Shown here in pieces: positions 16,633 through 62,557 of a stretch of 64,000 nt of DNA. Source of the DNA: Cristatella mucedo. Lineage: Eukaryota; Bryozoa; Phylactolaemata; Cristatellidae. The notes beneath the pieces were generated by a model. It did no database searches. It was not told the origin of the DNA and saw nothing but the letters and a program-made list of their open reading frames with translations. A program made the position numbers and the translations under genes. The DNA lies in assembly GCA_009760855.2 (NCBI GenBank), contig WPIO01000023.1, positions 3,600,501 to 3,664,500 on the forward strand, read 5' to 3'. Numbering within the stretch: position 1 is the stretch's first letter; every line of letters begins with the position of its first letter.

Positions 16633-16734
16633 CTAGTGGTGCTCCTGCTTCCTCGGCGGCTGCTTCTCCTCCGAAGTTCCAAGCACGCTCTTGTGCACTG
16701 CATCCAGACTAATGCCTTTCTCTTTCAGCACTTT
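16633..16734 (-). CDS. TRIAP1: TRIAP1 coding exon 2 (residues 48-80 and stop)
   Basis: A 102-nt exon, too short for a simple ORF scan. It follows a TTTTTAG acceptor, stays in phase 0 and ends in TAG. Its KVLKEKGI... start matches the position and style of the KAIKEKEI... stretch in vertebrate TRIAP1. Confidence 0.9.
   Translation of the reverse strand, partial: KVLKEKGISLDAVHKSVLGTSEEKQPPRKQEHH

Positions 16735-62557: not shown

What the first reader, a model, noticed from the sequence alone, without database searches (positions are those of the whole stretch)
16633..62557. TRIAP1 - SRSF1/9 - HEATR6 linkage looks like the unduplicated ancestor of the human 12q24 / 17q22-23 paralogous region
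The window places TRIAP1, one SRSF1/SRSF9-type gene and HEATR6 within 46 kb. From general knowledge of the human map, TRIAP1 is next to GATC and SRSF9 on 12q24, while SRSF1 and HEATR6 both lie on 17q22-23; these regions also share DYNLL1/2, MSI1/2 and TBX pairs. The SR protein here is about SRSF9-sized with SRSF1-like RRM1. This fits one ancestral block split between two vertebrate copies.
Basis: partly seen in the sequence, partly recalled or inferred. Interest (0 to 1): 0.7.

Follow-up and report, generated by a model that had tools for sequence, protein, structure and literature searches.

The report
Ancient neighbour genes TRIAP1, SRSF1/9, HEATR6
Three ordinary housekeeping genes sit side by side in an invertebrate genome in a way that still matches where their human counterparts lie on chromosomes 12 and 17, a likely trace of a chromosome region that vertebrates later doubled.

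Summary
The window carries TRIAP1 (-), one intact SRSF1/SRSF9-type gene (-) and HEATR6 (+) between 16,633 and 62,557; HEATR6 runs on to at least 71.8 kb in the flank. TRIAP1 and the SR gene are neighbours with no recognised gene between; in human, TRIAP1-GATC-SRSF9 are consecutive. In 250 kb of flank, HVCN1 (human chr 12, TRPV4 region, as TRIAP1/SRSF9) and SMARCB1 (22q11, recalled; 22q11 and 12q24 lie together in chicken chr 15) fit; TRAF, VAC14 and a DPP-like gene do not. GATC, DYNLL, MSI, T-box and six more recalled human queries from the region found nothing of their own in those 314 kb. I could compare no other invertebrate, and the genome-wide search answered once. Verdict: an old shared linkage, best explained as a pre-duplication block retained in an invertebrate; a new example of a well known kind (ancestral linkage groups), not the ancestor itself. 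Interest is modest.

The parts
21906..22046 (-). TRIAP1 exon 1 (start codon to donor)
   Evidence: tblastn 5e-14 with recalled human TRIAP1; splice model; PDB
16633..16734 (-). TRIAP1 exon 2 with stop codon
   Evidence: acceptor and frame read; spliced product matches human TRIAP1 over residues 1-70
35466..35623 (-). SRSF1/9 exon 1 from the start codon (most of RRM1)
   Evidence: own-genome RRM hit on C155
34123..34301 (-). SRSF1/9 exon 2 (end of RRM1, linker)
33791..33963 (-). SRSF1/9 exon 3 (RRM2 with SWQDLKD)
31515..31664 (-). SRSF1/9 exon 4 (end of RRM2, RS tail); stop codon follows
45284..62557 (+). HEATR6, exons for human residues about 110-944 (some middle exons weak); 5' exons before 45284 uncertain, 3' exons continue to at least 71790 outside the window
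7203..8132 (-). SRD5A3-like steroid/polyprenol reductase, single open frame; off-region neighbour
   Evidence: Steroid_dh 8.6e-25; the name SRD5A3 is by eye

Best explanation
The stretch is a piece of an old animal linkage group that this invertebrate kept. In the vertebrate line the same region was copied by the two whole-genome duplications. Afterwards the copies lost different genes: SRSF stayed on both (SRSF9 on 12q24, SRSF1 on 17q22), TRIAP1 and HVCN1 stayed only on the 12q24 copy, and HEATR6 only on the 17q copy. SMARCB1 went with the 22q11 part, which chicken still has together with 12q24. Shown here: the gene identities and order in this genome, and the position of the SR gene outside the human pair in a small tree. 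Taken from print: human and chicken gene lists and the 2R paralogon. Inferred: that the linkage is inherited rather than regained, that the SR gene is single, and the history of loss.
For: Gene identities. Window located in contig C155 (5.79 Mb) of a 572-Mb genome. Human lists seen as passages: MSI1, COX6A1, TRIAP1, GATC, SRSF9, DYNL1 as printed (PMC11867633); MSI2..SRSF1, VEZF1, DYNLL2 .. RNFT1, HEATR6 (PMC4256931). TRIAP1 and SRSF9 lie in the TRPV4 region of the gnathostomes studied, and that region belongs to a 2R tetraparalogon (PMC9664204, two sections read). HVCN1 is in the same human interval as TRPV4 (PMC10137185 passage) and follows HEATR6 here at 88.1-97.7 kb. SMARCB1 at about -28.7 to -26.6 kb; chicken 15 = 12q24 + 22q11-q12 (Jennen 2003, title seen in a reference list). 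Human SRSF1+SRSF9 clade 93%.
Against: Of nine flank and window genes that I can name with a human counterpart, four do not fit: SRD5A3, TRAF3/5-type, VAC14, DPP-like (human loci recalled). Of eleven recalled human queries tried on the 314 kb, only HVCN1, which I had already seen by eye, found its own gene; PPTC7, MSI1, DYNLL1, GATC, T-box, RAB35, RPLP0, SUPT4H1, ARPC3 and PPP1CC did not. Two RRM rows on C155, both this SR gene, so no sign of MSI on the contig (lower bound). The flank genes alone are weak evidence (P 0.15 for the two named regions, 0.04 with 22q added). The tree uses recalled sequences and rejects nothing.
Confidence: 0.75

Rival explanations
1. Chance neighbours: the genes came together by rearrangement in this lineage and only happen to fall in one human paralogon.
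For: Four of nine nameable genes on the stretch do not fit the region; ten of eleven recalled queries found nothing of their own; HEATR6 is 30 listed genes from SRSF1 in human; the region set was chosen after the fact.
Against: TRIAP1 next to SRSF as in human (a given gene within 2 genes of SRSF9/SRSF1: 4e-4); HVCN1 and SMARCB1 add fits.
Confidence: 0.14
2. Only the TRIAP1-SRSF pair is ancestral; HEATR6 joined by a later rearrangement and says nothing about 17q.
For: SRSF1 and HEATR6 are not close in human, and the SR and HEATR6 genes are divergent here; DYNLL, which lies near both human SRSF genes, was not found beside SRSF here.
Against: HEATR6 is still on 17q with SRSF1, and the next gene recognised here, HVCN1, is in the human TRPV4 region.
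Confidence: 0.2
3. The genome is a vertebrate or early-branching vertebrate and the gene is a true SRSF1 or SRSF9.
For: AU test does not reject it.
Against: Human SRSF1+SRSF9 cluster at 93% without it; it lacks the extra residue in the RRM1 loop that both human proteins have, as the recalled fly and worm proteins do; TRIAP1 ends with a tail unlike human.
Confidence: 0.03

Closest known systems
Human 12q24.31 TRIAP1-GATC-SRSF9 cluster
   Same: TRIAP1 and the SR gene are neighbours, on one strand (human strands recalled)
   Different: no GATC or DYNLL found here; HEATR6, not DYNLL1, is the next gene recognised beyond the SR gene
Human 17q22 SRSF1 ... HEATR6 region
   Same: SRSF-type gene and HEATR6 linked
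   Different: neighbours here, 30 listed genes apart in human; orientation differs (human strands recalled)
Chordate/bilaterian ancestral linkage groups (Simakov et al. 2020, PMC7269912; section 7 part 1 and passages read)
   Same: genes of one ancestral chromosome stay together while local order is shuffled; [quoted passage not shown]
2R tetraparalogon around TRPV4 (PMC9664204, sections 20-21 and passages read)
   Same: TRIAP1 and SRSF9 are in the TRPV4 region; HVCN1 lies in the same human interval
   Different: section 20 compares vertebrates only; no invertebrate counterpart of this gene block is described in the two sections read

Membership tests
SRSF1/SRSF9 (ASF/SF2-type SR protein) | RRM1 plus pseudo-RRM with SWQDLKD, RS tail | tested here: met
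SRSF1/SRSF9 (ASF/SF2-type SR protein) | branches outside the vertebrate SRSF1/SRSF9 pair (unduplicated gene) | tested here: inconclusive
   93% bootstrap for the human pair, AU does not reject alternatives
SRSF1/SRSF9 (ASF/SF2-type SR protein) | single copy in this genome | not tested
   protein search of the genome did not complete; the RRM search does not separate subfamilies
TRIAP1/Mdm35 | twin CX9C, UPF0203 | tested here: met
HEATR6 | DUF4042 with HEAT repeats, colinear over most of the protein | tested here: met
   (human sequence recalled)
Unduplicated counterpart of the human 12q24/17q22-23 paralogon | TRIAP1 beside the SR gene | tested here: met
Unduplicated counterpart of the human 12q24/17q22-23 paralogon | DYNLL, GATC, MSI, TBX nearby | tested here: not met
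   none in -50 to 264 kb by tblastn with recalled queries, E 0.05; no GatC or dynein light chain domain in the Pfam-scanned parts of the window; whole genome not answered (and repeats)
Unduplicated counterpart of the human 12q24/17q22-23 paralogon | further 12q24/17q/22q genes in the flank | tested here: inconclusive
   HVCN1 and SMARCB1 fit; TRAF, VAC14, DPP-like do not; six further recalled queries negative
Unduplicated counterpart of the human 12q24/17q22-23 paralogon | shared by other invertebrates | not testable with these tools
   no other animal genome is held

The most novel reading that the evidence does not exclude
SRSF upstream of TRIAP1 on one strand is a bilaterian-ancestral micro-block kept in order for over half a billion years by shared regulation, and the run SMARCB1 - TRIAP1 - SRSF - HEATR6 - HVCN1 preserves near-original neighbourhoods of the chromosome that became human 12q24, 17q and 22q11.
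Probability: 0.15. Interest if true: 0.5.

Novelty: new member of a known kind. Interest (0 to 1): 0.33.

Why it matters
If the linkage is shared by other invertebrates, it gives a small, checkable anchor for how one ancestral region was divided between human 12q24, 17q and 22q11, and would tie the SRSF1/SRSF9 split to the vertebrate genome duplications. Deep linkage of this kind is already established in general, so the gain is local detail.

Tried and rejected
GATC between TRIAP1 and SRSF: searched by tblastn, by motif and by Pfam on both strands; not found. Human GATC is short and split into several exons (recalled), so a miss is possible. Other genes in the unassigned parts of the window: only Tc1 remnants and LINE-like pieces were recognised (the same scan did find RRM2 as control). 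tRNA and Rfam: none. Relatives of the SR gene: one viral-collection locus and six MAG loci with 30-38% RRM-type matches, not used. VAC14 has no PDB match at 1e-10; its name rests on a recalled human sequence. The flank genes were picked from codon-scored segments and long frames (the output was cut), so the flank gene list is incomplete; many segments stayed unnamed. Literature: 0 papers hold HEATR6, SRSF1 and synteny; hold two of HEATR6/SRSF1/TRIAP1, of which I opened only PMC4256931 (passages); 0; one search gave nothing used; led to the papers cited. PMC13409549 (passages) also lists HVCN1 on chromosome 12. The hagfish genome paper (PMC10972751) holds none of the six terms tried. The species was not identified.

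Full report
What is there. The window is animal DNA (GC 42-56% in 4-kb steps), at C155:3600501-3664500 of a 572-Mb assembly with 688 contigs. C155 is 5.79 Mb long. The three named genes are real and look intact as far as they were read. TRIAP1 has two exons on the minus strand, ending at 16,633. The SRSF1/9-type gene has four coding exons on the minus strand between 35.6 and 31.5 kb. HEATR6 is on the plus strand with a series of colinear exons. The exon models were guided by recalled human sequences, but the letters scored are the window's own: PDB TRIAP1 7.1e-17, PDB SRSF1 3.5e-89, Pfam UPF0203, RRM_1 and DUF4042 (835 of 882 modelled HEATR6 residues sent). HEATR6 goes on beyond the window to at least 71,790, so 62,557 is not its end. 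An SRD5A3-like single-frame gene lies at 7,203-8,132.

Order. Left to right on C155 in window coordinates: MGH1/GH63-like glucosidase (about -47 to -24 kb, +, recognised by eye); SMARCB1 (about -28.7 to -26.6 kb, -), which thus lies among the glucosidase exons or within its span; a TRAF3/5-type gene (about -13 to -0.3 kb, +, by eye); SRD5A3 (-); TRIAP1 (-); SRSF1/9 (-); HEATR6 (+); HVCN1 (88.1-97.7 kb, +); VAC14 (about 132.8-169.3 kb, +); a DPP6/10-like gene (about 199-219 kb, +, by eye). Only 314 kb were read (50 kb left, the window, 200 kb right), about 5% of the contig, and the flank list is not complete.

Comparison with human. A 12q24 deletion report lists MSI1, COX6A1, TRIAP1, GATC, SRSF9, DYNL1 (as printed) in a row (PMC11867633, passage). 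A 17q22 table lists MSI2 ... SRSF1, VEZF1, DYNLL2 ... RNFT1, HEATR6, with 30 names between SRSF1 and HEATR6 (PMC4256931, passage). TRIAP1 and SRSF9 lie in the TRPV4 region of the gnathostomes examined, and the TRPV4 region is one of four 2R copies (PMC9664204, sections 20 and 21 read, passages elsewhere). A human chromosome 12 interval of about 2.1 Mb holds TRPV4 and HVCN1 (PMC10137185, passage). A chicken 15:9-10 Mb gene list holds MSI1, COX6A1, TRIAP1, GATC, DYNLL1 (SRSF9 is not in the passage) together with GNAZ and RSPH14, which I recall as 22q11 (PMC7402339, passage). A comparative map title gives chicken 15 = human 12q24 and 22q11-q12 (reference list only). Human strands, SMARCB1 at 22q11, SRD5A3 at 4q12, VAC14 at 16q22, TRAF3/5 at 14q32/1q32 and DPP6/10 at 7q36/2q14 are recalled and come from no call.

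Is it more than chance? A random-order model with 20,000 genes gives 4e-4 for one given gene falling within two genes of SRSF9 or SRSF1, and about 1e-4 for two of the three other window genes falling within 31 genes. Both are after the fact, and the radius of 31 was set by HEATR6 itself. The more independent test is the five flank genes with human counterparts read later: one of five in 12q24+17q has P 0.15, and two of five with 22q added has P 0.04 (region sizes are rough guesses, and adding 22q was prompted by SMARCB1). So the TRIAP1-SRSF pair carries most of the weight, and the flank adds a little.

The SR gene. Over 158 RRM columns it is 79% identical to human SRSF1 and 72% to SRSF9. At the 34 columns where the human two differ it matches SRSF1 at 18, SRSF9 at 7 and neither at 9. 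SRSF9 has the longer branch (0.28 against 0.07). In a six-sequence tree the human two group at 93%, with this gene outside, but AU does not reject placing it with SRSF1 (0.36) or SRSF9 (0.30). Fly and worm rows are recalled and unchecked, and the tree groups worm with plant (73%), so it is not reliable at depth. Both human proteins have one more residue in the RRM1 loop than this gene and the recalled fly and worm proteins; the plant protein also has the longer loop, so which state is older is not settled.

What was not found. Eleven recalled human queries were run on the 314 kb at E 0.05. HVCN1, already seen by eye, found its gene; MSI hit only the SRSF gene itself; DYNLL1, GATC, T-box, PPTC7, RAB35, RPLP0, SUPT4H1, ARPC3 and PPP1CC found nothing. 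Pfam scans of 1-7.2, 8.1-16.65, 22.05-31.55 and 35.7-45.6 kb of the window on both strands gave only weak transposase matches. On C155 the RRM search lists only two rows, both exons of this SR gene (2 of 113 matches; 150 of 268 candidates scored, so a lower bound); hence no sign of MSI on this contig.

How it works. The most likely history is inheritance: genes of one ancestral chromosome stay linked because exchanges between chromosomes are rare, while local order is shuffled (Simakov et al. 2020 describe 17 such groups, with relicts in vertebrates, amphioxus and molluscs; passages and part of one section). After the vertebrate duplications the copies lost different genes, giving TRIAP1 and HVCN1 on one copy, HEATR6 on the other and SRSF on both. 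No special mechanism is needed, and none is shown. That the TRIAP1-SRSF order itself is under constraint is possible but untested.

Verdict. It is probably a real but ordinary example of deep linkage; the word 'ancestor' should read 'retained in an unduplicated lineage'.

Noticed in passing
C155 right flank, window coordinates about 109600-126900 (L020-L022): Open frames resembling a protein-primed DNA polymerase B, a packaging ATPase and capsid-type proteins: a Polinton/Maverick-like element. Recognised by eye, observed only, not analysed.
   Followed up: no
C155 left flank, window coordinates about -47100 to -24300 (L036-L040): Exon-like segments of an MGH1/GH63-like glucosidase of a type better known from bacteria and fungi (recalled); a possible old transfer, not tested. 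SMARCB1 exons on the other strand lie within this span.
   Followed up: no
7203-8132 (-): SRD5A3-like reductase encoded in a single open frame without introns, beside intron-rich genes; a retrocopy is possible.
   Followed up: no
24593-24937 (-) and 27527-27889 (+): Remnants that look like Tc1-type transposases on opposite strands between TRIAP1 and the SR gene (Pfam HTH_Tnp_Tc3_2 for the first only, below its cut-off; the second by eye).
   Followed up: partly
window coordinates about 199700-200720 (L029): A GC-rich repeated stretch with long open frames in several frames on both strands, inside the span of the DPP-like gene.
   Followed up: no
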